Positions 1-64,000 of a stretch of 64,000 nucleotides of DNA are shown here, piece by piece. The notes under the pieces were generated by a model. That model did no database searches. It was not told the DNA's origin and was given only the letters and a program-made list of their open reading frames with translations. This DNA comes from Inia geoffrensis (lineage: Eukaryota > Chordata > Mammalia > Artiodactyla > Iniidae): contig CM070915.1 in assembly GCA_036417435.1 (NCBI GenBank), positions 82,771,799 to 82,835,798 of the forward strand, in the 5' to 3' direction. Position 1 is the stretch's first letter. Every line of letters begins with the position of its first letter. The position numbers and the translations under genes are program-made.

Positions 1-929
1 TGGTGTCCTAGTTAAGATTAAGGCACGGGTGAGGGTAAGGTTTTGGGTGAGGGTCAGGGATAGAATTCGGGTTAGGGTTAGGGTTAGGGAATGGGGAGAT
101 ATTAGGGCACAGTTTAGGGCACCACAACGCTTAAGGTTTAGTGTACGTGTGAGGTCACTAGTTAGGGTTAGTGTACTGCTTACGATTAGGGCACGGGTGA
201 GGGTAAGGCCTCGGAAGAGGGTCACGTTAAGGGTTAGAGTTAGGGTTAGGGTTAGGAAATGGGGATTGATTAGTGTACAGGTTAGGGTACGGCAATGGCT
301 TAGGGTTGGCGTACGTTAGAGGGCATGGGTTAGTGTTGATGTACTGGTTAAAATTAGGACACGGGTTAGGGTAAAGTTTCGGGTGAGTGTCATGGTTAGG
401 TTTCAGGTTAGGGTTAGGGTTAGGGAATGGAGAGGGATTAGGGTACAGGTTAGGGTACCGCTGCGGTTTAGTGTTAGCGTACGTTTGAGGGCACGAGTTA
501 GTCTTGGTGTCCTGGTTAAGATTAGGGTACGGGTGAGGGTAAGGCTTCGGGTGAGGGTCAGGGTTAGGATTCGGGTTAGGGTTAGGGTTAGGGAATGGAG
601 AGGGATTAGGGTACAGGTTAGGGTACGACAATGCTTAAGGCTTAGCGTAAGTGTGAGGGCACGAGTTAGTGTTGGTGTACTGGTTAAGACAACGGCACCG
701 ATGAGGGTAAGGCCTCGGAAAAGGGTCACGTTCAGGGTTTCGCTTAGGGTTATGGTTAGGGAATGGGGAGGGATTAGGGTACAGGATAGGGTACGACAAT
801 GCTTAAGGGTTAGCGTACGTTTGAGGGCATGAGTTAGTGTTTGTGTCCTGGTTAAGAATAGGGCATTGGTTAGGGTAGGGCATCGGAAGTGGGTCAGGTT
901 TAGGGATGGGGTTAGGGTTAGGGTTAAGG
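1..929 (+). repeat. Partial HOR at left edge (end of C, then D E F G H)
   Basis: The window opens inside monomer C (its end carries the EcoRI site at 63-68), followed by D at 90, E 258, F 426, G 594 and H 762. It has private substitutions, such as 'ggaaat' instead of 'gggaat' at the D/E boundary and 'tatggtt' in the G/H boundary core near 751. Confidence 0.92.
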
Positions 930-2273
930 AATGCGGAGGGATTAGGGTACAATTTAGGGTACGACAACGCTTAAGGTTTAGCGTACGTGTGAGGGCACGA
1001 GTTAGTGTTGGTGTCCTGGTTTAGATTAGGGCACGGGTGAGGGTAAGGCTTCGGGTGAGGGTCAGGGTTAGGATTCGTGTTAGGGTTAGGGTTAAGGAAT
1101 GCAGAGGGATTAGGGTACAGCTTAGGGTACGACAGTGCTTAAGGGTTAGCGTTCGTGTGAGGGCAAGGGTTAGTGTTAGTGTCCTGGTTAAGATTAGGGC
1201 ACAGGTGAGGGTAAGGCTTCAGGTGAGGGTCAGGGTTAGGATTCGGGTTAGGGTTAAGGTTAGGGAATGGGGAGGGATTAGGGTACAGTTTAGTGTACGA
1301 CAACGATTAAGGGTTAGCGTACGTTTGAGGGCACAAGTTAGTGTTGGTGTCCTGGTTAAGATTAGGGGACGGGTGAGGGTAAGGTTTCGGGTGAGGGTCA
1401 GGGATAGAATTCGGGTTAGGGTTAGTGTTAGGGAAAGGGGAGATATTAGGGCACAGTTTAGGGTACCACAACGCTTAAGGTTTAGCGTACGTGTGAGGTA
1501 ACTAGTTAGTGTTAGTGTACTGCTTACGATTAGGGCACGGGTGAGGGTAAGGCCTCGGAAGAGGGTCACGTTAAGGGTTAGGGTTAGGGTTAGGGTTAGG
1601 GAATGGGGATTGATTAGGGTACAGGTTAGGATACGGCAATGGCTTAGGGTTGGCGTACGTTAGAGGGCATGGGTTAGTGTTGATGTACTGGTTAAAATTA
1701 GGACACGGGTGAGGGTAAAGTTTCGGGTGCGTGTCATGGTTAGGTTTCAGGTTAGGGTTAGGGTTAGGGAATGGAGAGGGATTAGGGTACAGGTTAGGGT
1801 ACCGCTGCGGTTTAGTGTTAGCGTACGTGTGAGGGCACGAGTTAGTCTTGGTGTCCTGGTTAAGATTAGGGCACGGGTGAGGGTAAGGCTTCGGGTGAGG
1901 GTCAGGGTTAGGATTCGGGTTAGGTTTAGTGTTAGGGAATGGAGAGGGATTAGGGTACAGGTTAGGGTACGACAATGCTTAAGGGTTAGCGTAAGTGTGA
2001 GGGCACGAGTTAGTGTTGGTGTACTGGTTAAGACAAAGGCACCGATGAGCGTAAGGCCTCGGAAAAGGGTCACGTTCAGGGTTTCGCTTAGGGTTAGGGT
2101 TAGGGAATGGGGAGGGATTAGGGTACAGGATAGGGTACGACAATGCTTAAGGGTTAGCGTACGTTTGAGGGCATGAGTTAGTGTTTGTGTACTGGTTAAG
2201 ATTAGGGCATTGGTTAGGGTAGGGCATCGGGAGTGGGTCAGGTTTAGGGATGTGGTTAGGGTTAGGGTTAAGG
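930..2273 (+). repeat. HOR copy 1, canonical 8-mer (1344 bp)
   Basis: Monomers A 930, B 1098, C 1266, D 1434, E 1602, F 1770, G 1938, H 2106. A starts 'aatgcgg' and D starts 'aaaggg', both private variants. The core before G reads 'ttaggtttagtgttaggg', a partly decayed TTAGGG run. Confidence 0.92.
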
Positions 2274-5129: not shown

Positions 5130-6125
5130 AATGGGGAGGGATTAGGGTACAATTTAGGGTACGACAACACTTAAGGTTTAGCGTACGTGTGAGGGCACGA
5201 GTCAGTGTTGGTGTCCTGGTTAAGATTAGGGCACGGGTGAGGGTAAGGTTTCGGGTGAGGGTCAGGGATAGAATTCGGGTTAGGGTTAGGGTTAGGGAAT
5301 GGGGCGATATTAGGGCACAGTTTAGGGTACCACAACGCTTAAGGTTTAGCGTACGTGTGAGGTCACTAGTTAGTGTTAGTGTACTGCTTACGATTAAGGC
5401 ACGGGTGAGGGTAAGGCCTCGGAAGAGGGTCACGTTAAGGGTTAGGGTTTGGGAATGGGGATTGATTAGGGTACAGGTTAGGGTACAGCAATGGCTTAGG
5501 GTTGGCGTACGTTAGAGGGCATGGGTTAGTGTTGATGTACTGGTTAAAATTAGGACACGGGTGAGGGTAAAGTTTCGGGTGAGTGTCATGGTTAGGTTTC
5601 ACGTTACGGTTAGGGTTAGGGAATGGAGAGGGATTAGGGTACAGGTTAGGGTACCGCTGCGGTTTAGTGTTAGCGTACGTGTGAGGGCACGAGTTAGACT
5701 TGGTGTCCTGGTTAAGATTAGGGCACGGGTGAGGGTAAGGCTTCGGGTGAGGGTCAGGGTTAGGATTCGGGTTAGGGTTAGGGTTAGGGAATGGAGAGGG
5801 ATTAGGGTACAGGTTAGGGTACGACAATGCTTAAGGGTTAGCGTAAGTGTGAGGGCACGAGTTAGTGTTGGTGTACTGGTTAAGACAACGGCACCGATGA
5901 GGGTAAGGCCTCGGAAAAGGGTCACGTTCAGGGTTTCGCTTAGGGTTAGGGTTAGGGAATGGGGATGGATTAGGGTACAGGATAGGGTACGACAATGCTT
6001 AAGGGTTAGCGTACGTTTGAGGGCATGAGTTAGTGTTTGTGTACTGGTTAAGATTAGGGCATTGGTTAGGGTAGGGCATCGGAAGTGGGTCAGGTTTAGT
6101 GATGGGGTTAGTGTTAGGGTTAAAG
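5130..6125 (+). repeat. HOR copy 4, contracted 6-mer (996 bp)
   Basis: The monomer at 5130 starts as A ('gtacaattt') and ends as C, with 'tttcgggtg' and the EcoRI-bearing 'atagaattc', so about two monomer lengths (336 bp) between the A and C breakpoints are missing. D 5298, E 5454, F 5622, G 5790, H 5958. The D/E core is 12 bp (two hexamers) shorter than standard. Confidence 0.92.
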
Positions 6126-12935: not shown

Positions 12936-14278
12936 AATGGGGAGGGATTAGGGTACAATTTAGGGTACGACAACGCTTGAGGTTTAACGTACGTGTGAGG
13001 GCACGAGTTAGTGTTGGTGTCCTGGTTAAGATTAGGGCACGGGTGAGGGTAAGGCTTCGGGTGAGGGTCAGGGTTAGGATTCGGGTTAGGGTTAGGGTTA
13101 AGGAATGCAGAGGGATTAGGGTACTGCTTAGGGTACGACAGTGCTTAAGGGTTAGTGTTCGTGTGAGGGCAAGGGTTATTGTTAGTGTCCTGGTTAAGAT
13201 TAGGGCACGGGTGAGGGTAAGGTTTCGGGTGAGGGTCAGGGATAGAATTCGGGTTAGGGTTAGGGTTAGGGAATGGGGAGATATTAGGGCACAGTTTAGG
13301 GTACCACAACGCTTAAGGTTTAGCGTACGTGTGAGGTCACTAGTTAGTGTTAGTGTACTGCTTACGATTAGGGCACGGGTGAGGGTAAGGCCTCGGAAGA
13401 GGGTCACGTTAAGGGCTGGGTTAGGGTTAGGGTTAGGGAATGGGGATTGATTAGGGTACAGGTTAGGGTACGGCAATGGCTTAGGGTTGGCGTACGTTAG
13501 AGGGCATGTGTTAGTGTTGATGTACTGGTTAAAATTAGGACACGGGTGAGGGTAAAGTTTCGGGTGAGTGTCATGGTTAGGTTTCAGGTTAGGGTTAGGG
13601 TTAGGGAATGGAGAGGGATTAGGGTACAGGTTAGGGTACCGCTGCGGTTTAGTGTTAGCGTACGTTTGAGGGCACGAGTTAGTCTTGGTGTCCTGGTTAA
13701 GATTAGGGCACGGGTGAGGGTAAGGCTTCGGGTGAGGGTCAGGGTTAGGATTCGGGTTAGGGTTAGGGTTAGGGAATGGAGAGGGATTAGGGTATAGGTT
13801 AGGGTACGACAATGCTTAAGGGTTAGCGTAAGTGTGAGGGCACGAGTTAGTCTTGGTGTCCTGGTTAAGATTAGGGCACGGGTGAGGGTAAGGCTTCGGG
13901 TGAGGGTCAGTGTTAGGATTCGGGTTAGGGTTAGGGTTAGGGAATGGAGAGGGATTAGGGTACAGGTTAGGGTACGACAATGCTTAAGGGTTAGCGTAAG
14001 TGTGAGGGCACGAGTTAGTGTTGGTGTACTGGTTAAGACAACGGCACCGATGAGGGTAAGGCCTCGGAAAAGGGTCACGTTCAGGGTTTCGCTTAGGGTT
14101 AGGGTTAGGGAATGGGGAGGGATTAGGGTACAGGATAGGGTACGACAATGCTTAAGGGTTAGCGAACGTTTGAGGGCATGAGTTAGTGTTTGTGTACTGG
14201 GTAAGATTAGGGCATTGGTTAGGGTAGGGCATCGGAAGTGGGTCAGATTTAGGGATGGGGTTAGGGTTAAGGTTAAGG
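12936..14278 (+). repeat. HOR copy 10, 8-mer with B/C and G/F hybrids (1343 bp)
   Basis: A 12936, B/C hybrid 13104, D 13272, E 13439, F 13607, G/F hybrid 13775, G 13943, H 14111. A 1-bp deletion in the D/E core ('gggctggg' near 13414) breaks the hexamer register. Most of this copy, from about 13.1 kb, recurs at offset 4541. Confidence 0.9.
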
Positions 14279-48709: not shown

Positions 48710-50053
48710 AATGGGGAGGGATTAGGGTACAATTTAGGGTACGACAACGCTTAAGGTTTAGCGTACGTGTGAGGGCACGAGTTAGTGTTGGTGTCCTGGT
48801 TAAGATTAGGGCACGGGTGAGGGTAAGGCTTCGGGTGAGGTTCAGGGTTAGGATTCGGGTTAGGGTTAGGGTTAAGGAATGCAGAGGGATTAGGGTACAG
48901 CTTAGGGTACGACAGTGCTTAAGGGTTAGCGTTCGTGTGAGGGCAAGTGTTAGTGTTAGTGTCCTGGTTAAGATTAGGGCACGGGTTAGGGTAAGGCTTC
49001 AGGTGAGGGTCAGGGTTAGGATTCGGGTTAGGGTTAGGGTTAGGGAATGGGGAGGGATTAGGGAACAGTTTAGGGTACGACAACGATTAAGGGTTAGCAT
49101 ACGTGTGAGGGCACAAGTTAGTGTTGGTGTCCTGGTTAAGATTAGGGCACGGGTGAGGGTAAGGTTTCGGGTGAGGGTCAGGGATAGAATTCGGGTTAGG
49201 GTTAGGGTTAGGGAATGGGGAGATATTAGGGCACAGTTTAGGGTACCACAACGCTTAAGGTTTAGCATACGTGTGAGGTCACTAGTTAGTGTTAGTGTAC
49301 TGCTTACGATTAGGGCACGGGTGAGGGTAAGGCCTCGGAAGAGGGTCACGTTAAGGGTTAGGGTTAGGGTTAGGGTTAGGGAATGGGGATTGATTAGGGT
49401 ACAGGTTAGGGTACGGCAATGGCTTAGGGTTGGCGTACGTTAGAGGGCATGGGTTAGTGTTGATGTACTGGTTAAAATTAGGACACGGGTGAGGGTAAAG
49501 TTTCGGGTGAGTGTCATGGTTAGGTTTCAGGTTAGGGTTAGGGTTAGGGAATGGAGAGGGATTAGGGTACAGGTTAGGGTACCGCTGCGGTTTAGTGTTA
49601 GCGTACGTTTGAGGGCACGAGTTAGTCTTGGTGTCCTGGTTAAGATTAGGGCACGGGTGAGGGTAAGGCTTCGGGTGAGGGTCAGGGTTAGGATTCGGGT
49701 TAGGGTTAGGGTTAGGGAATGGAGAGGGATTAGGGTACAGGTTAGGGTACGACAATGCTTAAGGGTTAGCGTAAGTGTGAGGGCACGAGTTAATGTTGGT
49801 GTACTGGTTAAGACAACGGCACCGATGAGGGTAAGGCGTCAGAAAAGGGTCACGTTCAGGGTTTCGCTTAAGATTAGGGTTAGGGAATGGGGAGGGATTA
49901 GGGTACAGGATAGGGTACGACAATGCTTAAGGGTTAGCGTACGTTTGAGGGCATGAGTTAGTGTTTGTGTCCTGGTTAAGATTAGGGCATTGGTTAGGGT
50001 AGGGCATCGGAAGTGGGTCAGGTTTCGGGATGGGGTTAGGGTTAGGGTTAAGG
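48710..50053 (+). repeat. HOR copy 36, near-identical to copy 34
   Basis: It shares 'gaggttcagg', 'agggaacag', 'agcatacg', 'ttaatgttgg', 'cgtcagaa' and 'cttaagatt' with copy 34 at offset 2688. Confidence 0.93.
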
Positions 50054-51397
50054 AATGGGGAGGGATTAGGGTACAATTTAGGGTACGACAACGCTTAAGG
50101 TTTAGCGTACGTGTGAGGGCACGAGTTAGTGTTGGTGTCCTGGTTAAGATTAGGGCACGGGTGAGGGTAAGTCTTCGGGTGAGGGTCAGGGTTAGGATTC
50201 GGGTTAGGGTTAGGGTTAAGGAATGCAGAGGGATTAGGGTACAGCTTAGGGTACGACACTGCTTAAGGGTTAGCGTTCGTGTGAGGGCAAGGGTTAGTGT
50301 TAGTGTCCTGGTTAAGATTAGGGCACGGGTGAGGGTAAGGCTTCAGGTGAGGGTCAGGGTTAGGATTCTGGTTAGGGTTAGGGTTAGGGAATAGGGAGGG
50401 ATTAGGGTACAGTTTAGGGTACGACAACGATTAAGGGTTAGCGTACGTGTGAGGGCCCAAGTTAGTGTTGGTGTCCTGGTTAAGATTAGGGCACGTGTGA
50501 GGGTAAGGTTTCGGGTGAGGGTCAGGGATAGAATTCGGGTTAGGGTTAGGGTTACGGAATGGGGAGATATTAGGGCACAGTTTAGGGTACCACAACGCTT
50601 AAGGTTTAGCGTGCGTGTGAGGTCACTAGTTAGTGTTAGTGTACTGCTTACGATTAGGGCACGGGTGAGGGTAAGGCCTCGGAAGAGGGTCACGTTAAGG
50701 GTTAGGGTTAGGGTTAGGGTTAGGGAATGGGGATTGATTAGGGTACATGTTAGGGTACGGCAATGGCTTAGGGTTGGCGTACGTTAGAGGGCATGGGTTA
50801 GTGTTGATGTACTGGTTAAAATTAGGACACGGGTGAGGGTAAAGTTTCGGGTGAGTGTCATGGTTAGGTTTCAGGTTAGGGTTAGGGTTAGGGAATGGAG
50901 AGGGATTAGGGTACAGGTTAGGGTACCGCTGCGGTTTAGTGTTAGCGTACGTGTGAGGGCACGAGTTAGTCTTGGTGTTATGGTTAAGATTAGGGCACGG
51001 GTGAGGGTAAGGCTTCGGGTGAGGGTCAGGGTTAGGATTCGGGTTAGGGTTAGGGTTAGGGAATGGAGAGGGATTAGGGTACAGGTTAGGGTACGACAAT
51101 GCTTAAGGGTTAGCGTAAGTGTGAGGGCACGAGTTAGTGTTGCTGTACTGGTTAAGACAACGGCACCGATGAGGGTAAGGCCTCGGAAAAGGGTCACGTT
51201 CAGGGTTTCGCTTAGGGTTAGGGTTAGGGAATGGGGAGGGATTAGGGTACAGGATAGGGTACGACAATGCTTAAGGGTTAGCGTACGTTTGAGGGCATGA
51301 GTTAGTGTTTGTGTCCTGGTTAAGATTAGGGCATTGGTTAGGGTAGGGCATCGGAAGTGGGTCAGGTTTAGTGATGGGGTTAGGGTTAGGGTTAAGG
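50054..51397 (+). repeat. HOR copy 37, first half of a 1344-bp doublet
   Basis: C starts 'aataggg' (50390), a rare change repeated exactly 1344 bp later. F has the private 'gtgttatgg' near 50976. H reads 'tttagtgatg' near 51368, repeated in the next copy. Confidence 0.92.
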
Positions 51398-52741
51398 AAT
51401 GGGGAGGGATTAGGGTACAATTTAGGGTACGACAACGCTTAAGGTTTAGCGTACGTGTGAGGGCACGAGTTAGTGTTGGTGTCCTGGTTAAGATTAGGGC
51501 ACGGGTGAGGGTAAGTCTTCGGGTGAGGGTCAGGGTTAGGATTCGGGTTAGGGTTAGGGTTAAGGAATGCAGAGGGATTAGGGTACAGCTTAGGGTACGA
51601 CACTGCTTAAGGGTTAGCGTTCGTGTGAGGGCAAGGGTTAGTGTTAGTGTCCTGGTTAAGATTAGGGCACGGGTGAGGGTAAGGCTTCAGGTGAGGGTCA
51701 GGGTTAGGATTCTGGTTAGGGTTAGGGTTAGGGAATAGGGAGGGATTAGGGTACAGTTTAGGGTACGACAACGATTAAGGGTTAGCGTACGTGTGAGGGC
51801 CCAAGTTAGTGTTGGTGTCCTGGTTAAGATTAGGGCACGTGTGAGGGTAAGGTTTCGGGTGAGGGTCAGGGATAGAATTCGGGTTAGGGTTAGGGTTACG
51901 GAATGGGGAGATATTAGGGCACAGTTTAGGGTACCACAACGCTTAAGGTTTAGCGTGCGTGTGAGGTCACTAGTTAGTGTTAGTGTACTGCTTACGATTA
52001 GGGCACGGGTGAGGGTAAGGCCTCGGAAGAGGGTCACGTTAAGGGTTAGGGTTAGGGTTAGGGTTAGGGAATGGGGATTGATTAGGGTACATGTTAGGGT
52101 ACGGCAATGGCTTAGGGTTGGCGTACGTTAGAGGGCATGGGTTAGTGTTGATGTACTGGTTAAAATTAGGACACGGGTGAGGGTAAAGTTTCGGGTGAGT
52201 GTCATGGTTAGGTTTCAGGTTAGGGTTAGGGTTAGGGAATGGAGAGGGATTAGGGTACAGGTTAGGGTACCGCTGCGGTTTAGTGTTAGCGTACGTGTGA
52301 GGGCACGAGTTAGTCTTGGTGTTCTGGTTAAGATTAGGGCACGGGTGAGGGTAAGGCTTCGGGTGAGGGTCAGGGTTAGGATTCGGGTTAGGGTTAGGGT
52401 TAGGGAATGGAGAGGGATTAGGGTACAGGTTAGGGTACGACAATGCTTAAGGGTTAGCGTAAGTGTGAGGGCACGAGTTAGTGTTGCTGTACTGGTTAAG
52501 ACAACGGCACCGATGAGGGTAAGGCCTCGGAAAAGGGTCACGTTCAGGGTTTCGCTTAGGGTTAGGGTTAGGGAATGGGGAGGGATTAGGGTACAGGATA
52601 GGGTACGACAATGCTTAAGGGTTAGCGTACGTTTGAGGGCATGAGTTAGTGTTTGTGTCCTGGTTAAGATTAGGGCATTGGTTAGGGTAGGGCATCGGAA
52701 GTGGGTCAGGTTTAGTGATGGGGTTAGGGTTAGGGTTAAGG
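51398..52741 (+). repeat. HOR copy 38, second half of a 1344-bp doublet
   Basis: It shares 'aataggg' (51734) and 'tttagtgatg' (near 52712) with copy 37 at offset 1344. Almost no other differences are visible by eye, so this is among the most recent single-HOR duplications in the window. Confidence 0.93.
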
Positions 52742-54925
52742 AATGGGGAGGGATGAGGGTACAATTTAGGGTACGACAACGCTTAAGGTTTAGCGTACGT
52801 GTGAGGGCACGAGTTAGTGTTGGTGTCCTGGTTAAGATTAGGGCACGGGTGAGGGTAAGTCTTCGGGTGAGGGTCAGGGTTAGGATTAGGGTTAGGGTTA
52901 GGGTTAAGGAATCCAGAGGGATTAGGGTACAGCTTAGGGTACGACACTGCTTAAGGGTTAGCGTTCGTGTGAGGGCAAGTGTTAGTGTTAGTGTCCTGGT
53001 TAAGATTAGGGCACGGGTGAGGGTAAGGCTTCAGGTGAGGGTCAGGGTTAGGATTCTGGTTAGGGTTAGGGTTAGGGAATGGGGAGGGATTAGGGTACAG
53101 TTTAGGGTACGACAGCGATTAAGGGTTAGCGTACGTGTGAGGGCACAAGTTAGTGTTGGTGTCCTGGTTAAGATTAGGGCACGGGTGAGGGTAAGGTTTC
53201 GGGTGAGGGTCAGGGATAGAATTCGGGTTAGGGTTAGGGTTACGGAATGGGGAGATATTAGGGCACAGTTTAGGGTACCACAACGCTTAAGGTTTAGCGT
53301 ACGTGTGAGGTCACTAGTTAGTGTTAGTGTACTGCTTACGATTAGGGCACGGGTGAGGGTAAGGCCTCGGAAGAGGGTCACGTTAAGGGTTAGGGTTAGG
53401 GTTAGGGTTAGGGAATGGGGATTGATTAGGGTACATGGTAGGGTACGGCAATGGCTTAGGGTTGGCGTACGTTAGAGGGCATGGGTTAGTGTTGATGTAC
53501 TGGTTAAAATTAGGACACGGGTGAGGGTAAAGTTTCGGGTGAGTGTCATGGTTAGGTTTCAGGTTACGGTTAGGGTTAGGGAATGGAGAGAGATTAGGGT
53601 ACAGGTTAGGGTACCACTGCGGTTTAGTGTTAGCGTACGTGTGAGGGCACGAGTTAGTCTTGGTGTTCTGGTTAAGATTAGGGCACGGGTGAGGGTAAGT
53701 CTTCGGGTGAGGGTCAGGGTTAGGATTCGGGTTAGGGTTAGGGTTAAGGAATGCAGAGGGATTAGGGTACAGCTTAGGGTACGACACTGCTTAAGGGTTA
53801 GCGTTCGTGTGAGGGCAAGGGTTAGTGTTAGTGTCCTGGTTAAGATTAGGGCACGGGTGAGGGTAAGGCTTCAGGTGAGGGTCAGGGTTAGGATTCTGGT
53901 TAGGGTTAGGGTTAGGGAATGGGGAGGGATTAGGGTACAGTTTAAGGTACGACAACGATTAAGGGTTAGCGTACGTGTGAGGGCCCAAGTTAGTGTTGGT
54001 GTCCTGGTTAAGATTAGGGCACGTGTGAGGGTAAGGTTTCGGGTGAGGGTCAGGGATAGAATTCGGGTTAGGGTTAGGGTTACGGAATGGGGAGATATTA
54101 GGGCACAGTTTAGGGTACCACAACGCTTAAGGTTTAGCGTGCGTGTGAGGTCACTAGTTAGTGTTTGTGTACTGCTTACGATTAGGGCACGGGTGAGGGT
54201 AAGGCCTCGGAAGAGGGTCACGTTAAGGGTTAGGGTTAGGGTTAGGGTTAGGTAATGGGGATTGATTAGGGTACATGTTAGGGTACGGCAATGGCTTAGG
54301 GTTGGCGTACGTTAGAGGGCATGGGTTAGTGTTGATGTACTGGTTAAAATTAGGACACGGGTGAGGGTAAAGTTTCGGGTGAGTGTCATGGTTAGGTTTC
54401 AGGTTAGGGTTAGGGTTAGGGAATGGAGAGGGATTAGGGTACAGGTTAGGGTACCGCTGCGGTTTAGTGTTAGCGTACGTGTGAGGGCACGAGTTAGTCT
54501 TGGTGTTCTGGTTAAGATTAGGGCACGGGTGAGGGTAAGGCTTCGGGTGAGGGTCAGGGTTAGGATTCGGGTTAGGGTTAGGGTTAGGGAATGGAGAGGG
54601 ATTAGGGTACAGGTTAGGGTACGACAATGCTTAAGGGTTAGCGTAAGTGTGAGGGCACGAGTTAGTGTTGCTGTACTGGTTAAGACAACGGCACCGATGA
54701 GGGTAAGGCCTCGGAAAAGGGTCACGTTCAGGGTTTCGCTTAGGGTTAGGGTTAGGGAATGGGGAGGGATTAGGGTACAGGATAGGGTACGACAATGCTT
54801 AAGGGTTAGCGTACGTTTGAGGGCATGAGTTAGTGTTTGTGTCCTGGTTAAGATTAGGGCATTGGTTAGGGTATGGCATCGGAAGTGGGTCAGGTTTAGG
54901 GATGGGGTTAGGGTTAGGGTTAAGG
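52742..54925 (+). repeat. HOR copy 39, 13-mer with F/A hybrid (2184 bp)
   Basis: Order: A 52742, B, C, D, E, F/A hybrid 53582, B 53750, C 53918, D 54086, E 54254, F 54422, G 54590, H 54758. The hybrid starts as F ('gtaccactgcgg', 'gtcttggtg') and ends as A ('gtaagtcttc', then 'ttaaggaatgcag'). G and H of the first HOR are missing. E at 54254 starts 'ggtaatgg'. Confidence 0.92.
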
Positions 54926-57109
54926 AATGGGGAGGGATGAGGGTACAATTTAGGGTACGACAACGCTTAAGGTTTAGCGTACGTGTGAGGGCACGAGTTA
55001 GTGTTGGTGTCCTGGTTAAGATTAGGGCACGGGTGAGGGTAAGTCTTCGGGTGAGGGTCAGGGTTAGGATTCGGGTTAGGGTTAGGGTTAAGGAATGCAG
55101 AGGGATTAGGGTACAGCTTAGGGTACGACACTGCTTAAGGGTTAGCGTTCGTGTGAGGGCAAGGGTTAGTGTTAGTGTCCTGGTTAAGATTAGGGCACGG
55201 GTGAGGGTAAGGCTTCAGGTGAGGGTCAGGGTTAGGATTCTGGTTAGGGTTAGGGTTAGGGAATGGGGAGGGATTAGGGTACAGTTTAGGGTACGACAGC
55301 GATTAAGGGTTAGCGTACGTGTGAGGGCACAAGTTAGTGTTGGTGTCCTGGTTAAGATTAGGGCACGGGTGAGGGTAAGGTTTCGGGTGAGGGTCAGGGA
55401 TAGAATTCGGGTTAGGGTTAGGGTTACGGAATGGGGAGATATTAGGGCACAGTTTAGGGTACCACAACGCTTAAGGTTTAGCGTACGTGTGAGGTCACTA
55501 GTTAGTGTTAGTGTACTGCTTACGATTAGGGCACGGGTGAGGGTAAGGCCTCGGAAGAGGGTCACGTTAAGGGTTAGGGTTAGGGTTAGGGTTAGGGAAT
55601 GGGGATTGATTAGGGTACATGGTAGGGTACGGCAATGGCTTAGGGTTGGCGTACGTTAGAGGGCATGGGTTAGTGTTGATGTACTGGTTAAAATTAGGAC
55701 ACGGGTGAGGGTAAAGTTTCGGGTGAGTGTCATGGTTAGGTTTCAGGTTACGGTTAGGGTTAGGGAATGGAGAGAGATTAGGGTACAGGTTAGGGTACCA
55801 CTGCGGTTTAGTGTTAGCGTACGTGTGAGGGCACGAGTTAGTCTTGGTGTTCTGGTTAAGATTAGGGCACGGGTGAGGGTAAGTCTTCGGGTGAGGGTCA
55901 GGGTTAGGATTCGGGTTAGGGTTAGGGTTAAGGAATGCAGAGGGATTAGGGTACAGCTTAGGGTACGACACTGCTTAAGGGTTAGCGTTCGTGTGAGGGC
56001 AAGGGTTAGTGTTAGTGTCCTGGTTAAGATTAGGGCACGGGTGAGGGTAAGGCTTCAGGTGAGGGTCAGGGTTAGGATTCTGGTTAGGGTTAGGGTTAGG
56101 GAATGGGGAGGGATTAGGGTACAGTTTAGGGTACGACAACGATTAAGGGTTAGCGTACGTGTGAGGGCCCAAGTTAGTGTTGGTGTCCTGGTTAAGATTA
56201 GGGCACGTGTGAGGGTAAGGTTTCGGGTGAGGGTCAGGGATAGAATTCGGGTTAGGGTTAGGGTTACGGAATGGGGAGATATTAGGGCACAGTTTAGGGT
56301 ACCACAACGCTTAAGGTTTAGCGTGCGTGTGAGGTCACTAGTTAGTGTTTGTGTACTGCTTACGATTAGGGCACGGGTGAGGGTAAGGCCTCGGAAGAGG
56401 GTCACGTTAAGGGTTAGGGTTAGGGTTAGGGTTAGGTAATGGGGATTGATTAGGGTACATGTTAGGGTACGGCAATGGCTTAGGGTTGGCGTACGTTAGA
56501 GGGCATGGGTTAGTGTTGATGTACTGGTTAAAATTAGGACACGGGTGAGGGTAAAGTTTCGGGTGAGTGTCATGGTTAGGTTTCAGGTTAGGGTTAGGGT
56601 TAGGGAATGGAGAGGGATTAGGGTACAGGTTAGGGTACCGCTGCGGTTTAGTGTTAGCGTACGTGTGAGGGCACGAGTTAGTCTTGGTGTTCTGGTTAAG
56701 ATTAGGGCACGGGTGAGGGTAAGGCTTCGGGTGAGGGTCAGGGTTAGGATTCGGGTTAGGGTTAGGGTTAGGGAATGGAGAGGGATTAGGGTACAGGTTA
56801 GGGTACGACAATGCTTAAGGGTTAGCGTAAGTGTGAGGGCACGAGTTAGTGTTGCTGTACTGGTTAAGACAACGGCACCGATGAGGGTAAGGCCTCGGAA
56901 AAGGGTCACGTTCAGGGTTTCGCTTAGGGTTAGGGTTAGGGAATGGGGAGGGATTAGGGTACAGGATAGGGTACGACAATGCTTAAGGGTTAGCGTACGT
57001 TTGAAGGCATGAGTTAGTGTTTGTGTCCTGGTTAAGATTAGGGCATTGGTTAGGGTATGGCATCGGAAGTGGGTCAGGTTTAGGGATGGGGTTAGGGTTA
57101 GGGTTAAGG
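54926..57109 (+). repeat. HOR copy 40, duplicate of the 13-mer (2184 bp)
   Basis: Same 13-monomer order as copy 39 at offset 2184, with the hybrid at 55766. By eye I see about five mismatches between the two, for example 'attaggg' (about 52886) versus 'attcggg', and 'tttaagg' (about 53942) versus 'tttaggg'. Confidence 0.93.
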
Positions 57110-58621
57110 AATGGGGAGGGATGAGGGTACAATTTAGGGTATGACAACGCTTAAGGTTTAGCGTACGTGTGAGGGCACGAGTTAGTGTTGGTGTCCTGGT
57201 TAAGATTAGGGCACGGGTGAGGGTAAGTCTTCGGGTGAGGGTCAGGGTTAGGATTCGGGTTAGGGTTAGGGTTAAGGAATGCAGAGGGATTAGGGTACAG
57301 CTTAGGGTACGACACTGCTTAAGGGTTAGCGTTCGTGTGAGGGCAAGGGTTAGTGTTAGTGTCCTGGTTAAGATTAGGGCACGGGTGAGGGTAAGGCTTC
57401 AGGTGAGGGTCAGGGTTAGGATTCTGGTTAGGGTTAGGGTTAGGGAATGGGGAGGGATTAGGGTACAGTTTAGGGTACGACAGCGATTAAGGGTTAGCGT
57501 ACGTGTGAGGGCACAAGTTAGTGTTGGTGTCCTGGTTAAGATTAGGGCACGGGTGAGGGTAAGGTTTCGGGTGAGGGTCAGGGATAGAATTCGGGTTAGG
57601 GTTAGGGTTACGGAATGGGGAGATATTAGGGCACAGTTTAGGGTACCACAACGCTTAAGGTTTAGCGTACGTGTGAGGTCACTAGTTAGTGTTAGTGTAC
57701 TGCTTACGATTAGGGCACGGGTGAGGGTAAGGCCTCGGAAGAGGGTCACGTTAAGGGTTAGGGTTAGGGTTAGTGTTAGGGAATGGGGATTGATTAGGGT
57801 ACATGGTAGGGTACGGCAATGGCTTAGGGTTGGCGTACGTTAGAGGGCATGGGTTAGTGTTGATGTACTGGTTAAAATTAGGACACGGGTGAGGGTAAAG
57901 TTTCGGGTGAGTGTCATGGTTAGGTTTCAGGTTACGGTTAGGGTTAGGGAATGGAGAGAGATTAGGGTACAGGTTAGGGTACCACTGCGGTTTAGTGTTA
58001 GCGTACGTGTGAGGGCACGAGTTAGTCTTGGTGTCCTGGTTAAGATTAGGGCACGGGTGAGGGTAAGGCTTCGGGTGAGGGTCAGGGTTAGGATTCGGGT
58101 TAGGGTTAGGGTTAGGGAATGGAGAGGGATTAGGGTACAGGTTAGGGTACCGCTGCGGTTTAGTGTTAGCGTACGTGTGAGGGCACGAGTTAGTCTTGGT
58201 GTTCTGGTTAAGATTAGGGCACGGGTGAGGGTAAGGCTTCGGGTGAGGGTCAGGGTTAGGATTCGGGTTAGGGTTAGGGTTAGGGAATGGAGAGGGATTA
58301 GGGTACAGGTTAGGGTACGACAATGCTTAAGGGTTAGCGTAAGTGTGAGGGCACGAGTTAATGTTGGTGTACTGGTTAAGACAACGGCACCGATGAGGGT
58401 AAGGCGTCGGAAAAGGGTCACGTTCAGGGTTTCGCTTAAGATTAGGGTTAGGGAATGGGGAGGGATTAGGGTACAGGATAGGGTACGACAATGCTTAAGG
58501 GTTAGCGTACGTTTGAGGGCATGAGTTAGTGTTTGTGTCCTGGTTAAGATTAGGGCATTGGTTAGGGTAGGGCATCGGAAGTGGGTCAGGTTTAGGGATG
58601 GGGTTAGGGTTAGGGTTAAGG
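57110..58621 (+). repeat. HOR copy 41, 9-mer with tandem F monomers (1512 bp)
   Basis: A 57110, B 57278, C 57446, D 57614, E 57782, F 57950, second F 58118, G 58286, H 58454. The two F copies differ ('gagagatt', 'gtaccactg' versus 'gagggatt', 'gtaccgctg'), so they come from different HOR haplotypes rather than a local copy. Confidence 0.92.
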
Positions 58622-58789
58622 AATGGGGAGGGATTAGGGTACAATTTAGGGTACGACAACGCTTAAGGTTTAGCGTACGTGTGAGGGCACGAGTTAGTGT
58701 TGGTGTCCTGGTTAAGATTAGGGCACGGGTGAGGGTAAGGCTTCGGGTGAGGGTCAGGGTTAGGATTCGGGTTAGGGTTAGGGTTAAGG
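58622..58789 (+). repeat. Reference monomer A
   Basis: Twenty-eight in-register hexamers. Diagnostics are 'gtacaatttaggg' and 'gcttaaggtttagcg'. It ends in a weakened core (two TTAGGG then 'ttaagg') before B, so the A/B boundary has fewer uninterrupted GGG tracts than other boundaries. Confidence 0.93.
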
Positions 58790-58957
58790 AATGCAGAGGG
58801 ATTAGGGTACAGCTTAGGGTACGACACTGCTTAAGGGTTAGCGTTCGTGTGAGGGCAAGGGTTAGTGTTAGTGTCCTGGTTAAGATTAGGGCACGGGTGA
58901 GGGTAAGGCTTCAGGTGAGGGTCAGGGTTAGGATTCTGGTTAGGGTTAGGGTTAGGG
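58790..58957 (+). repeat. Reference monomer B
   Basis: Starts 'aatgcagagg', the only monomer without the 'aatgg' start. Other diagnostics: 'gtacagctt', 'gcgttcgtg', 'gggcaagg' and 'cttcaggtg'. In this haplotype it reads 'attctgg' before the TTAGGG core. Confidence 0.93.
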
Positions 58958-59125
58958 AATGGGGAGGGATTAGGGTACAGTTTAGGGTACGACAACGATT
59001 AAGGGTTAGCGTACGTGTGAGGGCCCAAGTTAGTGTTGGTGTCCTGGTTAAGATTAGGGCACGTGTGAGGGTAAGGTTTCGGGTGAGGGTCAGGGATAGA
59101 ATTCGGGTTAGGGTTAGGGTTACGG
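58958..59125 (+). repeat. Reference monomer C (carries the EcoRI site)
   Basis: Diagnostics: 'acagtttaggg', 'caacgattaaggg' and the end 'cagggatagaattcggg', which contains GAATTC. This haplotype has 'ggcccaag' and 'cacgtgtg'. The core before D is interrupted as 'ttacgg'. Confidence 0.93.
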
Positions 59126-59293
59126 AATGGGGAGATATTAGGGCACAGTTTAGGGTACCACAACGCTTAAGGTTTAGCGTGCGTGTGAGGTCACTAGTTA
59201 GTGTTAGTGTACTGCTTACGATTAGGGCACGGGTGAGGGTAAGGCCTCGGAAGAGGGTCACGTTAAGGGTTAGGGTTAGGGTTAGGGTTAGGG
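59126..59293 (+). repeat. Reference monomer D (longest TTAGGG core)
   Basis: Diagnostics: 'gagatattagggcac', 'gtaccacaac' (KpnI site GGTACC just before), 'ggtcactag', 'tactgcttacg', 'cctcggaagagg' and 'tcacgttaaggg'. It ends in four perfect TTAGGG at 59270-59293, the longest pure run in the HOR. Confidence 0.93.
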
Positions 59294-59300
59294 AATGGGG
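59267..59300 (+). other. Representative TTAGGG core / predicted G-quadruplex at the D/E boundary
   Basis: Six G tracts (67-69, 73-75, 79-81, 85-87, 91-93, 97-100 within 59200-59300) separated by three bases each, which meets the usual G-quadruplex pattern. Four perfect TTAGGG copies also provide several TTAGGGTTA sites, the core bound by TRF1/TRF2-type Myb domains. One such core recurs once per HOR. Confidence 0.75.
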
Positions 59301-59461
59301 ATTGATTAGGGTACATGTTAGGGTACGGCAATGGCTTAGGGTTGGCGTACGTTAGAGGGCATGGGTTAGTGTTGATGTACTGGTTAAAATTAGGACACGG
59401 GTGAGGGTAAAGTTTCGGGTGAGTGTCATGGTTAGGTTTCAGGTTAGGGTTAGGGTTAGGG
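59294..59461 (+). repeat. Reference monomer E
   Basis: Diagnostics: 'ggggattgatt', 'gtacggcaatgg', 'gttggcgtacgttag', 'gatgtactgg', 'aaaattaggacac' and 'gtgtcatggttagg'. It is the most distinctive monomer and is never seen as a recombination partner inside its body in this window. Confidence 0.9.
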
Positions 59462-59629
59462 AATGGAGAGGGATTAGGGTACAGGTTAGGGTACCGCTGC
59501 GGTTTAGTGTTAGCGTACGTGTGAGGGCACGAGTTAGTCTTGGTGTTCTGGTTAAGATTAGGGCACGGGTGAGGGTAAGGCTTCGGGTGAGGGTCAGGGT
59601 TAGGATTCGGGTTAGGGTTAGGGTTAGGG
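59462..59629 (+). repeat. Reference monomer F
   Basis: Starts 'aatggagaggg' as G does. Diagnostics: 'gtaccgctgcggttt' (with a KpnI site GGTACC) and 'ttagtcttggtg'. Because F and G share the first 40 or so bases, F/G exchange is frequent. Confidence 0.93.
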
Positions 59630-59797
59630 AATGGAGAGGGATTAGGGTACAGGTTAGGGTACGACAATGCTTAAGGGTTAGCGTAAGTGTGAGGGCACGA
59701 GTTAGTGTTGGTGTACTGGTTAAGACAACGGCACCGATGAGGGTACGGCGTCGGAAAAGGGTCACGTTCAGGGTTTCGCTTAGGGTTAGGGTTAGGG
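59630..59797 (+). repeat. Reference monomer G
   Basis: Diagnostics: 'gcgtaagtg', 'gacaacggcaccgatg', 'cctcggaaaagg' (here with 'gtacggcgtcgg'), and 'gttcagggtttcgc'. The middle part departs furthest from TTAGGG while keeping the 6-bp register. Confidence 0.93.
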
Positions 59798-59965
59798 AAT
59801 GGGGAGGGATTAGGGTACAGGATAGGGTACGACAATGCTTAAGGGTTAGCGTACGTTTGAGGGCATGAGTTAGTGTTTGTGTCCTGGTTAAGATTAGGGC
59901 ATTGGTTAGGGTAGGGCATCGGAAGTGGGTCAGGTTTAGGGATGGGGTTAGGGTTAGGGTTAAGG
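59798..59965 (+). repeat. Reference monomer H
   Basis: Diagnostics: 'acaggatagg', 'gtttgagggcatgag', 'gtttgtgtcc', 'gcattggttaggg', 'catcggaagtggg' and 'ttagggatgggg'. It ends with 'ttaagg' before the next A. Confidence 0.93.
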
Positions 59966-61477
59966 AATGGGGAGGGATTAGGGTACAATTTAGGGTACGA
60001 CAACGCTTAAGGTTTAGCGTACGTGTGAGGGCACGAGTTAGTGTTGGTGTCCTGGTTAAGATTAGGGCACGGGTGAGGGTAAGGCTTCGGGTGAGGGTCA
60101 GGGTTAGGATTCGGGTTAGGGTTAGGGTTAAGGAATGCAGAGGGATTAGGGTACAGCTTAGGGTACGACAGTGCTTAAGGGTTAGCGTTCGTGTGAGGGC
60201 AAGGGTTAGTGTTAGTGTCCTGGTTAAGATTAGGGCACGGGTTAGGGTAAGGCTTCAGGTGAGGGTCAGGGTTAGGATTCGGGTTAGGATTAGGGTTAGG
60301 GAATGGGGAGGGATTAGGGAACAGTTTAGGGTACGACAACGATTAAGGGTTAGCATACGTGTGAGGGCACAAGTTAGTGTTGGTGTCCTGGTTAAGATTA
60401 GGGCACGGGTGAGGGTAAGGTTTCGGGTGAGGGTCAGGGATAGAATTCGGGTTAGGGTTAGGGTTAGGGAATGGGGAGATATTAGGGCACAGTTTAGGGT
60501 ACCACAACGCTTAAGGTTTAGCATACGTGTGAGGTCACTAGTTAGTGTTAGTGTACTGCTTACGATTAGGGCACGGGTGAGGGTAAGGCCTCGGAAGAGG
60601 GTCACGTTAAGGGTTAGGGTTAGGGTTAGGGTTAGGGAATGGGGATTGATTAGGGTACAGGTTAGGGTACGGCAATGGCTTAGGGTTGGCGTACGTTAGA
60701 GGGCATGGGTTAGTGTTGATGTACTGCTTAAAATTAGGACACGGGTGAGGGTAAAGTTTCGGGTGAGTGTCATGGGTAGGTTTCAGGTTAGGGTTAGGGT
60801 TAGGGAATGGAGAGGGATTAGGGTACAGGTTAGGGTACCGCTGCGGTTTAGTGTTAGCGTACGTTTGAGGGCACGAGTTAGTCTTGGTGTCCTGGTTAAG
60901 ATTAGGGCACGGGTGAGGGTAAGGCTTCGTGTGAGGGTCAGGGTTAGGATTCGGGTTAGGGTTAGGGTTAGGGAATGGAGAGGGATTAGGGTACAGGTTA
61001 GGGTACCGCTGCGGTTTAGTGTTAGCGTACGTGTGAGGGCACGAGTTAGTCTTGGTGTTCTGGTTAAGATTAGGGCACGGGTGAGGGTAAGGCTTCGGGT
61101 GAGGGTCAGGGTTAGGATTCGGGTTAGGGTTAGGGTTAGGGAATGGAGAGGGATTAGGGTACAGGTTAGGGTACGACAATGCTTAAGGGTTAGCGTAAGT
61201 GTGAGGGCACGAGTTAATGTTGGTGTACTGGTTAAGACAACGGCACCGATGAGGGTAAGGCGTCGGAAAAGGGTCACGTTCAGGGTTTCGCTTAAGATTA
61301 GGGTTAGGGAATGGGGAGAGATTAGGGTACAGGATAGGGTACGACAATGCTTAAGGGTTAGCGTACGTTTGAGGGCATGAGTTAGTGTTTGTGTCCTGGT
61401 TAAGATTAGGGCATTGGTTAGGATAGGGCATCGGAAGTGGGTCAGGTTTAGGGATGGGGTTAGGGTTAGGGTTAAGG
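59966..61477 (+). repeat. HOR copy 43, 9-mer with tandem F monomers (1512 bp)
   Basis: A 59966, B, C, D, E 60638, F 60806, second F 60974, G 61142, H 61310. The first F has the 'cgtttgagg' form and the second the 'cgtgtgagg' and 'gtgttctgg' form, so again two haplotypes were joined. The structure matches copy 41. Confidence 0.92.
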
Positions 61478-62821
61478 AATGGGGAGGGATTAGGGTACAA
61501 TTTAGGGTACGACAACGCTTAAGGTTTAGCGTACGTGTGAGGGCACGAGTTAGTGTTGGTGTCCTGGTTAAGATTAGGGGACGGGTGAGGGTAAGGCTTC
61601 GGGTGAGGTTCAGGGTTAGGATTCGGGTTAGGGTTAGGGTTAAGGAATGCAGAGGGATTAGGGTACAGCTTAGGGTACGACAGTGCTTAAGGGTTAGCGT
61701 TCGTGTGAGGGCAAGGGTTAGTGTTAGTGTCCTGGTTAAGATTAGGGCACGGGTTAGGGTAAGGCTTCAGGTGAGGGTCAGGGTTAGGATTCGGGTTAGG
61801 GTTAGGGTTAGGGAATGGGGAGGGATTAGGGAACAATTTAGGGTACGACAACGATTAAGGGTTAGCATACGTGTGAGGGCACAAGTTAGTGTTGGTGTCC
61901 TGGTTAAGATTAGGGCACGGGTGAGGGTAAGGTTTCGGGTGAGGGTCAGGGATAGAATTCGGGTTAGGGTTAGGGTTAGGGAATGGGGAGATATTAGGGC
62001 ACAGTTTAGGGTACCACAACGCTTAAGGTTTAGCATACGTGTGAGGTCACTAGTTAGTGTTAGTGTACTGCTTACGATTAGGGCACGGGTGAGGGTAAGG
62101 CCTCGGAAGAGGGTCACGTTAAGGGTTAGGGTTAGGGTTAGGGTTAGAGAATGGGGATTGATTAGGGTACAGGTTAGGGTACGGCAATGGCTTAGGGTTG
62201 GCGTACGTTAGAGGGCATGGGTTAGTGTTGATGTACTGGTTAAAATTAGTACACGGGTGAGGGTAAAGTTTCGGGTGAGTGTCATGGTTAGGTTTCAGGT
62301 TAGGGTTAGGGTTAGGGAATGGAGAGGGATTAGGGTACAGGTTAGGGTACCGCTGCGGTTTAGTGTTAGCGTACGTTTGAGGGCACGAGTTAGTCTTGGT
62401 GTCCTGGTTAAGATTAGGGCATGGGTGAGGGTAAGGCTTCGGGTGAGGGTCAGGGTTAGGATTCGGGTTAGGGTTAGGGTTAGGAAATGGAGAGGGATTA
62501 GGGTACAGGTTAGGGTACGACAATGCTTAAGGGTTAGCGTAAGTGTGAGGGCACGACTTAATGTTGGTGTACTGGTTAAGACAACGGCACCGATGAGGGT
62601 AAGGCGTCGGAAAAGGGTCACGTTCAGGGTTTCGCTTAAGATTAGGGTTAGGGAATGGGGAGGGATTAGGGTACAGGATAGGGTACGACAATGCTTAAGG
62701 GTTAGCGTACGTTTGAGGGCATGAGTTAGTGTTTGTGTCCTGGTTAAGATTAGGGCATTGGTTAGGGTAGGGCATCGGAAGTGGGTCAGGTTTAGGGATG
62801 GGGTTAGGGTTAGGGTTAAGG
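61478..62821 (+). repeat. HOR copy 44, canonical 8-mer (1344 bp)
   Basis: It shares 'gaggttcagg', 'agggaaca' and 'agcatacg' with copies 34 and 36. Private variants include 'ttaggggacgg' near 61576 and 'gcacgactta' near 62551. Confidence 0.92.
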
Positions 62822-64000
62822 AATGGGGAGGGATTAGGGTACAATTTAGGGTACGACAACGCTTAAGGTTTAGCGTACGTGTGAGGGCACGAGTTAGTGT
62901 TGGTGTCCTGGTTAAGATTAGGGCACGGGTGAGGGTAAGGCTTCGGGTGAGGGTCAGGGTTAGGATTCGGGTTAGGGTTAGGGTTAAGGAATGCAGAGGG
63001 ATTAGGGTACCGCTTAGGGTACGACACTGCTTAAGGGTTAGCGTTCGTGTGAGGGCAAGGGTTAGTGTTAGTGTCCTGGTTAAGATTAGGGCACGGGTGA
63101 GGGTAAGGCTTCAGGTGAGGGTCAGGGTTAGGATTCTGGTTAGGGTTAGGGTTAGGGAATGGGGAGGGATTAGGGTACAGTTTAGGGTACGACAACGATT
63201 AAGGGTTAGCGTACGTGTGAGGGCCCAAGTTAGTGTTGGTGTCCTGGTTAAGATTAGGGCACGTGTGAGGGTAAGGTTTCGGGTGAGGGTCAGGGATAGA
63301 ATTCGGGTTAGGGTTAGGGTTACGGAATGGGGAGATATTAGGGCACAGTTTAGGGTACCACAACGCTTAAGGTTTAGCGTGCGTGTGAGGTCACTAGTTA
63401 GTGTTAGTGTACTGCTTACGATTAGGGCACGGGTGAGGGTAAGGCCTCGGAAGAGGGTCACGTTAAGGGTTAGGGTTAGGGTTAGGGTTAGGGAATGGGG
63501 ATTGATTAGGGTACATGTTAGGGTACGGCAATGGCTTAGGGTTGGCGTACGTTAGAGGGCATGGGTTAGTGTTGATGTACTGGTTAAAATTAGGACACGG
63601 GTGAGGGTAAAGTTTCGGGTGAGTGTCATGGTTAGGTTTCAGGTTAGGGTTAGGGTTAGGGAATGGAGAGGGATTAGGGTACAGGTTAGGGTACCGCTGC
63701 GGTTTAGTGTTAGCGTACGTGTGAGGGCACGAGTTAGTCTTGGTGTTCTGGTTAAGATTAGGGCACGGGTGAGGGTAAGGCTTCGGGTGAGGGTCAGGGT
63801 TAGGATTCGGGTTAGGGTTAGGGTTAGGGAATGGAGAGGGATTAGGGTACAGGTTAGGGTACGACAATGCTTAAGGGTTAGCGTAAGTGTGAGGGCACGA
63901 GTTAGTGTTGGTGTACTGGTTAAGACAACGGCACCGATGAGGGTACGGCGTCGGAAAAGGGTCACGTTCAGGGTTTCGCTTAGGGTTAGGGTTAGAGAAT
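62822..64000 (+). repeat. Partial HOR at right edge (A to start of H)
   Basis: A 62822, B 62990, C 63158, D 63326, E 63494, F 63662, G 63830, with H beginning at 63998. It closely matches copy 42 at offset 4200, including the rare 'gtacggcgtcgg' in G. The array clearly continues past the window. Confidence 0.94.

What the first reader, a model, noticed from the sequence alone, without database searches (positions are those of the whole stretch)
1..64000. A satellite made entirely of degenerate TTAGGG hexamers, with alpha-satellite-like HOR structure
The 168-bp monomer is exactly 28 hexamers, with perfect TTAGGG runs grading into diverged hexamers, and eight monomer types form a 1344-bp HOR. 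Interstitial telomeric repeats are well known, but organisation into a monomer plus a multi-monomer HOR, as in primate alpha satellite, is not something I recognise as described for a telomere-derived satellite. This is the main candidate for a previously undescribed system.
Basis: partly seen in the sequence, partly recalled or inferred. Interest (0 to 1): 0.9.

Follow-up and report, generated by a model that had tools for sequence, protein, structure and literature searches.

The report
Telomere-derived repeat arrays capping whale chromosomes
A toothed-whale genome carries many megabases of satellite DNA that began as the chromosome-end repeat TTAGGG, decayed, and was re-amplified into ordered eight-unit blocks that lie mostly toward contig ends and, in the one junction read base by base, run straight into a telomere.

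Summary
The window is one head-to-tail array of 381 monomers of about 168 bp (28 degenerate TTAGGG hexamers). Eight types in fixed order make a 1344-bp higher-order repeat (HOR). The host looks like a toothed whale: 21 autosome-sized contigs plus two, myoglobin nearest a narwhal-headed cluster, and a 1.74-kb second satellite. The family has about 375,000 pattern hits, roughly 73 Mb. The same types recur on other contigs, often near an end, with the TTAGGG strand mostly pointing outward; inland relatives exist too. On one scaffold the array runs into a telomere that joins inside a monomer. Older inland copies lack the HOR. Telomere-like satellites have been known since the 1970s in rodents, and a terminal satellite is on record for baleen whales, so 'previously undescribed system' is too strong. 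The combination (telomere-derived, HOR-ordered, terminal, telomere-polar, telomere-contiguous) I did not find described in capped searches. Best reading: a terminal heterochromatin satellite spread by unequal exchange. No selected function was shown; perfect hexamers are not better conserved than others.

The parts
1..64000 (+). Continuous array of a telomere-derived satellite, 381 full monomers of about 168 bp, TTAGGG on the + strand throughout
   Evidence: GC skew 0.58-0.61 in all 32 windows
72..1415 (+). First full 1344-bp HOR copy (monomers A-H)
   Evidence: Type string; monomer starts
72..239 (+). One 168-bp monomer (type A), opening with the TTAGGG x3 core
   Evidence: run listed at position 72
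5280..5435 (+). 156-bp variant of type A (label I), two hexamers shorter; six monomers of this type, all before 29.1 kb
13757..13924 (+). Chimeric D/C monomer (switch between bp 75 and 95) that makes the 9-monomer HOR; eight such chimeras between 13757 and 25520
   Evidence: 10 mismatches to the best single type, 2 to the D/C chimera
21993..22160 (+). Chimeric G/A monomer (label L) marking loss of part of an HOR
   Evidence: 13 mismatches to the best single type, 1 to the chimera
29540..53731 (+). Longest unbroken run of canonical monomer order (24,192 bp = 18 x 1344)
   Evidence: No non-standard transition listed between 29540 and 53732
53732..64000 (+). Right part with two 5-monomer HORs (ABCGH) and two 9-monomer HORs (ABCCDEFGH)

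Best explanation
This is a terminal (subtelomeric) heterochromatin satellite of a toothed whale, derived from telomeric DNA. Proposed history: (1) proximal telomeric TTAGGG, no longer renewed by telomerase, decays by point mutation (inferred); (2) irregular telomere-like modules become a regular 168-bp monomer (supported by surviving old copies); (3) eight diverged monomers are co-amplified as a 1344-bp HOR (shown); (4) the array grows, shrinks and homogenises by in-register unequal exchange, leaving chimeric monomers and HOR variants, and by gain or loss of whole hexamers (traces shown in the window); (5) the same HOR spreads among chromosome ends by ectopic exchange, which tends to keep telomere polarity (inferred from shared types and polarity); (6) telomeric repeats can join directly onto a satellite end (one scaffold). 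What it does for the cell is most likely passive: bulk terminal heterochromatin, a sequence that persists because exchange keeps making it.
For: Hexamer origin. HOR and types. Chimeric monomers at duplication and deletion points, 13 of the 368 monomers of 168 bp tested. Nine of 13 length variants are whole hexamers. Same A-H types at 0.96-0.99 in 17 of 18 satellite stretches sampled on C2, C10, C12, C16, C21, C22 and C24 (one C2 stretch 0.936; C7 differs, 0.83-0.84). Abundance 189,456 + 185,653 pattern hits: calibrated at 0.858 per monomer. Terminal position by point samples: C24 neither satellite at 79.0 and 80.5 Mb, satellites from 81.2 Mb to the contig end at 83.08 Mb; C15 telomere, then HOR satellite to 560 kb, then the 1.74-kb satellite. 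Polarity: all 7 chromosome-size contigs with full-length hits are outward (40 of 6427 candidates scored), as are all 58 listed near-end hits on 7 contigs (100 of 109 listed); together 10 of 10 contigs. Direct junction: L094. Old forms at C1:99.53 and C1:118.69 Mb. CpG decay: 41 transition alleles over 104 CpG sites against 74 over 582 other C/G sites.
Against: The family is not only terminal: the capped list (its first 100 places, all on C1) has 72 inland and 28 near the right end, and one match is inland at C19:74.03 Mb. Polarity exceptions in samples: C21 at 91.5 and 92.2 Mb, C32 at 0.7 Mb, the last 200 bp of C1. The 58 outward hits are not independent (22 on C7, 21 on C21). Of 43 contig ends sampled on 23 chromosome-size contigs, 6 show this satellite, 9 the 1736-bp repeat, 8 telomere, 6 N and 14 none of these. 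At none of the eight placed telomeric ends was the satellite shown next to the telomere: C22 right has neither satellite 13 kb inward; C19 left reads N at 10 kb and neither at 20 kb; C10 left runs into N; the other five were not followed. The junction rests on one unlocalised scaffold. Centromere positions are unknown, so 'terminal' could include a centromere of a one-armed chromosome. No experiment supports heterochromatin state.
Confidence: 0.76

Rival explanations
1. It is a centromeric satellite: the arrays sit at the centromere end of one-armed (telocentric) chromosomes, as in mouse, and the HOR serves kinetochore chromatin.
For: Nucleosome-like 168-bp monomer and HOR order, as in alpha satellite; several contigs have satellite at or near one end and a telomere at the other (C10, C22, C23, C30).
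Against: No CENP-B box on either strand, best site three mismatches away; on C7, C10, C12, C15, C21 and C24 the arrays lie beside a second large satellite; most cetacean chromosomes are two-armed (recalled).
Confidence: 0.15
2. The satellite is a selected telomere back-up: its TTAGGG-like motifs bind TRF proteins and let a broken end be healed or maintained by recombination.
For: 796 YTAGGGTTR sites on the + strand of the window, none on the other; a telomere joined mid-monomer, and a second internal telomeric block with 16 TCAGGG variants between satellite monomers.
Against: Perfect hexamers vary as much as imperfect ones (0.0120 against 0.0140, p 0.42) and the 18-bp core is not conserved (0.0154 against 0.0134, p 0.99); one scaffold only; satellite next to the telomere was not shown at any of the eight placed telomeric ends seen.
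Confidence: 0.1
3. An ordinary interstitial telomeric sequence left by chromosome fusion.
For: TTAGGG origin; some inland copies.
Against: Megabase arrays toward many contig ends, about 375,000 pattern hits, ordered HOR, no CCCTAA and so no head-to-head junction in the window.
Confidence: 0.02
4. An assembly artefact (a short repeat stretched or mis-ordered).
For: Satellites are hard to assemble; six sampled contig ends lie inside the array.
Against: Independent contigs carry the same types with different HOR variants; chimeric monomers and shared variants look like history, not error.
Confidence: 0.02

Closest known systems
Rodent TTAGGG satellites: guinea-pig alpha satellite (Southern 1970) and kangaroo-rat HS-alpha (Fry and Salser 1977)
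   Same: Abundant satellite built on the telomeric hexamer (PMC9498494 passages; title)
   Different: Different mammal order. I could not read the originals and recall no 168-bp monomer or 1344-bp HOR for them; their position and polarity were not checked
Terminal ('heavy') satellite of whalebone whales (Adegoke, Arnason and Widegren 1993; Arnason and Widegren 1989)
   Same: Cetacean satellite with terminal chromosome localisation (title only)
   Different: I recall a repeat near 422 bp in baleen whales; here it is 168/1344 bp in a toothed whale. Sequence not compared. This is the most likely family and the main threat to novelty
Heterochromatic interstitial telomeric sequences (Chinese hamster and others)
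   Same: Large telomere-like blocks that form satellite DNA (PMC9693754 and PMC6410037 passages)
   Different: Described there as mainly centromeric or pericentromeric; here mostly toward contig ends and in HORs
Subtelomeric degenerate TTAGGG of human and other vertebrates
   Same: Degenerate telomere repeats near chromosome ends, head to tail (PMC8122249 and PMC9693754 passages)
   Different: No fixed monomer or HOR is mentioned in the passages seen
Primate alpha satellite
   Same: Nucleosome-length monomer, diverged types in fixed order, near-identical HOR copies (PMC8122249 passage)
   Different: No CENP-B box here; sequence is TTAGGG-based; not shown to be centromeric

Membership tests
Telomere-derived satellite (general) | Basic unit is TTAGGG | tested here: met
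   1.71 mismatches per hexamer against 3.69 +- 0.12 in shuffles
Telomere-derived satellite (general) | Abundant in the genome | tested here: met
   375,109 pattern hits, about 73 Mb or 2.7% if the window's 0.858 hits per monomer holds elsewhere
HOR-organised satellite | Diverged monomers in fixed order, HOR copies much more alike than neighbouring monomers | tested here: met
   28 canonical HOR copies 97.9% alike, type consensuses 78-95%
Cetacean terminal/heavy satellite | Host is a cetacean | tested here: met
   Myoglobin 97% to a cluster headed by narwhal (39 members), 92% Ziphius, 91% sperm whale; ancestral whale myoglobins best in PDB; 21 autosome-size contigs plus C34, C35
Cetacean terminal/heavy satellite | Terminal chromosome localisation | tested here: inconclusive
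   Arrays toward contig ends and C15 contiguous with a telomere, but inland copies exist and no FISH was possible
Cetacean terminal/heavy satellite | Repeat unit near 422 bp (recalled) | tested here: not met
   168 and 1344 bp in the window; 411- and 414-bp self-matches in two 601-bp samples of old C1 copies, absent from the top lists for the 4.5- and 4.0-kb stretches there
Cetacean terminal/heavy satellite | Sequence similarity to the published repeat | not testable with these tools
   Paper not held (also a second id); no repeat library on hand
Primate alpha satellite | CENP-B box | tested here: not met
   0 boxes on either strand; box pattern recalled
Primate alpha satellite | Centromeric function | not testable with these tools
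   Needs CENP-A ChIP or FISH
Rodent HS-alpha / guinea-pig alpha satellite | Homology by descent | not testable with these tools
   No collection of other mammal genomes to compare with; independent origin from telomeres is as likely

The most novel reading that the evidence does not exclude
Whale chromosome ends are in continuing exchange with a satellite made from telomeres: ends broken inside the satellite are healed by telomere addition, later recombination buries those telomeres inside new satellite, and one genome keeps the stages from degenerate hexamers to a widely shared HOR. Some chromosome ends are then telomere/satellite composites rather than telomere plus unique subtelomere.
Probability: 0.25. 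Interest if true: 0.75.

Novelty: new variant of a known kind. Interest (0 to 1): 0.55.

Why it matters
It shows how far a known raw material can go: telomeric DNA can become a megabase, HOR-ordered satellite of the alpha-satellite style without being alpha satellite. Because old irregular copies, a divergent array (C7) and the homogeneous HOR survive in one genome, the birth of a higher-order repeat can be read in stages. The direct telomere-satellite junction makes it testable whether terminal satellites and telomeres exchange. It also warns that TTAGGG probes and telomere-length estimates in such whales may read satellite as telomere.

Tried and rejected
Coding: the ORF listing gives 96 ORFs of 150 aa or more, up to 523 aa, but 168 and 1344 are multiples of three, so open frames repeat mechanically; rejected as genes. 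RNA: no Rfam match at gathering level in the window or in 11 other stretches. Prokaryote, plasmid or virus origin: no hit in two viral-contig scans, one 62-base plasmid match, and five 17-mer hits in prokaryote contigs with no satellite around them. CENP-B box: none. Purifying selection on perfect TTAGGG hexamers or on the 18-bp core: not seen. Restoration bias at diverged sites: 42 of 115 variant alleles restore the TTAGGG base, against one third expected: nothing. Guinea-pig and squirrel hosts were considered first and dropped on contig number, the 1.74-kb satellite and myoglobin; a hedgehog guess (paper search) led nowhere. The tRNA scan of 13 stretches for SINE-like hits found none. Pfam on three reading frames of the 1736-bp repeat: none, so the L1 origin stated for cetacean satellites in a title was not confirmed here.

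Papers: ten searches listed no title that describes a HOR in a telomere-derived satellite. Lists were capped (for example 20 of 36, 15 of 399, 25 of 95) and the library holds open-licence papers only, so this is weak evidence of absence. I saw passages of PMC9498494, PMC5615363, PMC7767330, PMC8122249, PMC9693754, PMC6410037, PMC6368218 and PMC7763226 (the last also section 23). Southern 1970, Fry and Salser 1977 and Adegoke 1993 were seen as titles only.

Full report
What was checked. The window is one tandem array from base 1 to base 64000. Self-match peaks lie at 168 and 1344, TRF gives 168 x 381.5, and the strand bias is uniform. The 168-bp consensus falls into 28 hexamers in a single phase with 1.71 mismatches each to TTAGGG; the lowest of 5000 shuffles was 3.14 and the lowest of 5000 Markov sequences 2.93. 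At clustering cut-off 0.065 the monomers fall into eight main types A-H, a shortened A (label I, six monomers) and three singletons J, K, L. With I counted as A, 344 of 380 steps follow the cyclic order. 27 of all 168 columns carry the same non-TTAGGG base in all eight types, 77 the same TTAGGG base, and 64 vary, so the types share a common decayed ancestor.

How the array changes. The HOR is regular for 24.2 kb (29540-53731) and varied on both sides. Of the 368 monomers of exactly 168 bp, 13 are better explained by two parents than by one (gain of at least four matches): eight D/C, four G/H and one G/A, with switch intervals between bp 65 and 137, outside the TTAGGG core. In the 9-monomer HOR written ABCFDEFGH the extra unit is the D/C chimera, which is what an unequal exchange in register leaves. 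Thirteen monomers differ in length: six of 156 and one each of 144, 162 and 174 (nine whole-hexamer changes), and four of 167. These are not independent: most of the 156s recur at HOR spacing. CpG sites carry about three times the transition alleles of other C and G sites, as in a methylated germline.

Where it is. The window lies at G000:C24:82771799-82835798 of a 2.749-Gb genome in 895 contigs. By point samples C24 has neither satellite at 79.0 and 80.5 Mb, HOR satellite at 81.2, a 1736-bp satellite at 81.5-81.7, and HOR satellite from 81.8 to the contig end at 83.08 Mb. C1, C7, C10, C12, C21, C22, C23, C30 and C32 carry it near one end. Of 43 ends sampled on 23 chromosome-size contigs, 6 end in this satellite, 9 in the 1736-bp repeat, 8 in telomere, 6 in N and 14 in none of these (the right ends of C33, C34 and C35 were not sampled). 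The A-H types are shared: 17 of 18 sampled stretches on seven contigs have best-type identity 0.96-0.99, one 0.936; C7 is divergent at 0.83-0.84. Genome-wide the pattern TTAGGGTTARGGAATG has 189,456 forward and 185,653 reverse hits, against 2 and 2 for the reversed control. With 0.858 hits per monomer in the window this is about 437,000 monomers, 73 Mb or 2.7%; a rough figure, since divergent copies hit less often and arrays may be collapsed. The list is capped at its first 100 places, all on C1: 72 are inland and 28 lie at 189.59 Mb near the right end.

Polarity. In one search (40 of 6427 candidates scored) the chromosome-size contigs with full-length matches are C10, C21, C24 (near the right end, +) and C12, C22, C30, C32 (near the left end, -): 7 of 7 outward. 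In one search, 100 of 109 matches are listed; 58 lie within about 8 Mb of an end of C7 (22), C11 (2), C12 (1), C20 (1), C21 (21), C30 (9) or C32 (2), and all 58 point outward; one (C19:74.03 Mb) is inland; 41 are on small contigs. Together 10 of 10 contigs. Exceptions from point samples: C21 at 91.5 and 92.2 Mb, C32 at 0.7 Mb, and the last 200 bp of C1.

The junction. Scaffold C15 reads as CCCTAA repeats in 1-4000 and 8000 to about 8.64 kb; 4001-7999 was not read. Read on the G strand toward the end (L094), HOR satellite stops inside a monomer and passes into about 470 bases of telomeric repeats, of which 16 units are TCAGGG; satellite resumes at the TTAGGG core of a monomer for about 420 bases and again stops inside a monomer, where the final telomeric tract begins. 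Point samples inward are satellite to 560 kb and the 1736-bp repeat from 600 kb. Telomeric ends were also seen at C10, C19, C34 and C35 left and at C22, C23, C30 and C31 right. At C22 neither satellite is found 13 kb inward; at C19 the 10-kb sample is N and the 20-kb sample neither. So satellite-capped ends are not shown to be the rule.

Older relatives. At C1:118.69 Mb a 4-kb stretch is TTAGGG-like hexamers whose top self-matches are at 18, 30, 36 and 12 bp, with 168 not among the top 14. At C1:99.53 Mb about 2.5 kb shows irregular units (TRF periods 132 to 222), at up to 79.5% identity to the HOR. A tree of 27 rows (8 type consensuses, 12 C7, 4 and 3 C1 units; only units of 140-190 bp were kept, 19 of 53) puts the C1 copies apart from the HOR types and C7 (100/99), and mixes C7 with A-H; only 4 of 22 inner branches are starred. 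TTAGGG density is 32.9 per kb in the window, 41.9 and 39.5 in the two old stretches. C7 has (TTAGGG)8 or longer at five successive spacings of 5376 bp, which is 32 x 168.

Host. Twenty-one contigs of 37-192 Mb, C34 of 144.7 Mb and C35 of 17.5 Mb (contigs after C35 were not surveyed) fit 2n = 44, the number given for most Cetacea (PMC7763226 section 23). Myoglobin read from the genome is 97% identical to a cluster of 39 sequences headed by narwhal, 92% to Ziphius and 91% to sperm whale; nearer species may hide in that cluster. It resembles what I recall of the Amazon river dolphin sequence; this was not verified. The 1736-1750-bp tandem repeat has the size I recall for the common cetacean satellite. 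So: a toothed whale, species not settled.

What it is and is not. Membership in the class of telomere-derived satellites is met. Membership in the baleen-whale terminal satellite could not be tested by sequence, and the recalled 422-bp unit is not what the window shows. Alpha-satellite membership is not met. I commit to a terminal heterochromatin satellite kept by unequal exchange and spread between ends (0.76). A back-up telomere role stays possible but has no conservation behind it.

Noticed in passing
L036, L035 (G000:C3 and C2 left ends); also C24:81.5-81.7 Mb: A 1736-1750-bp tandem satellite with a 72-bp inverted piece, neighbouring the telomere-derived satellite on several contigs; probably the common cetacean satellite.
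   Followed up: partly
G000:C7:5269-167723: Divergent telomere-derived array (0.83-0.84 to the window types) with perfect (TTAGGG)8+ runs at five successive spacings of 5376 bp, i.e. 32 monomers.
   Followed up: partly
L138 (C1:99.53 Mb), L139 (C1:118.69 Mb): Old inland relatives without HOR order; possible record of how the monomer formed.
   Followed up: partly
G000:C1:95.3-103.7 Mb: Inland pattern hits recur in pairs of opposite strand about 50 kb apart, as if an inverted or duplicated segment were repeated many times (one search list).
   Followed up: no
L025 (C21:90.4 Mb), L016 (C24:82.4 Mb): A four-monomer sub-HOR DEFG with 684-bp period on two chromosomes.
   Followed up: no
L094 (C15:8301-11999): Block of 16 TCAGGG variant repeats next to TTAGGG inside the satellite, like a buried telomere.
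   Followed up: partly
L051 (C19 left end): About 1 kb of CCCCCA-rich repeats outside the telomeric tract at a contig end.
   Followed up: no
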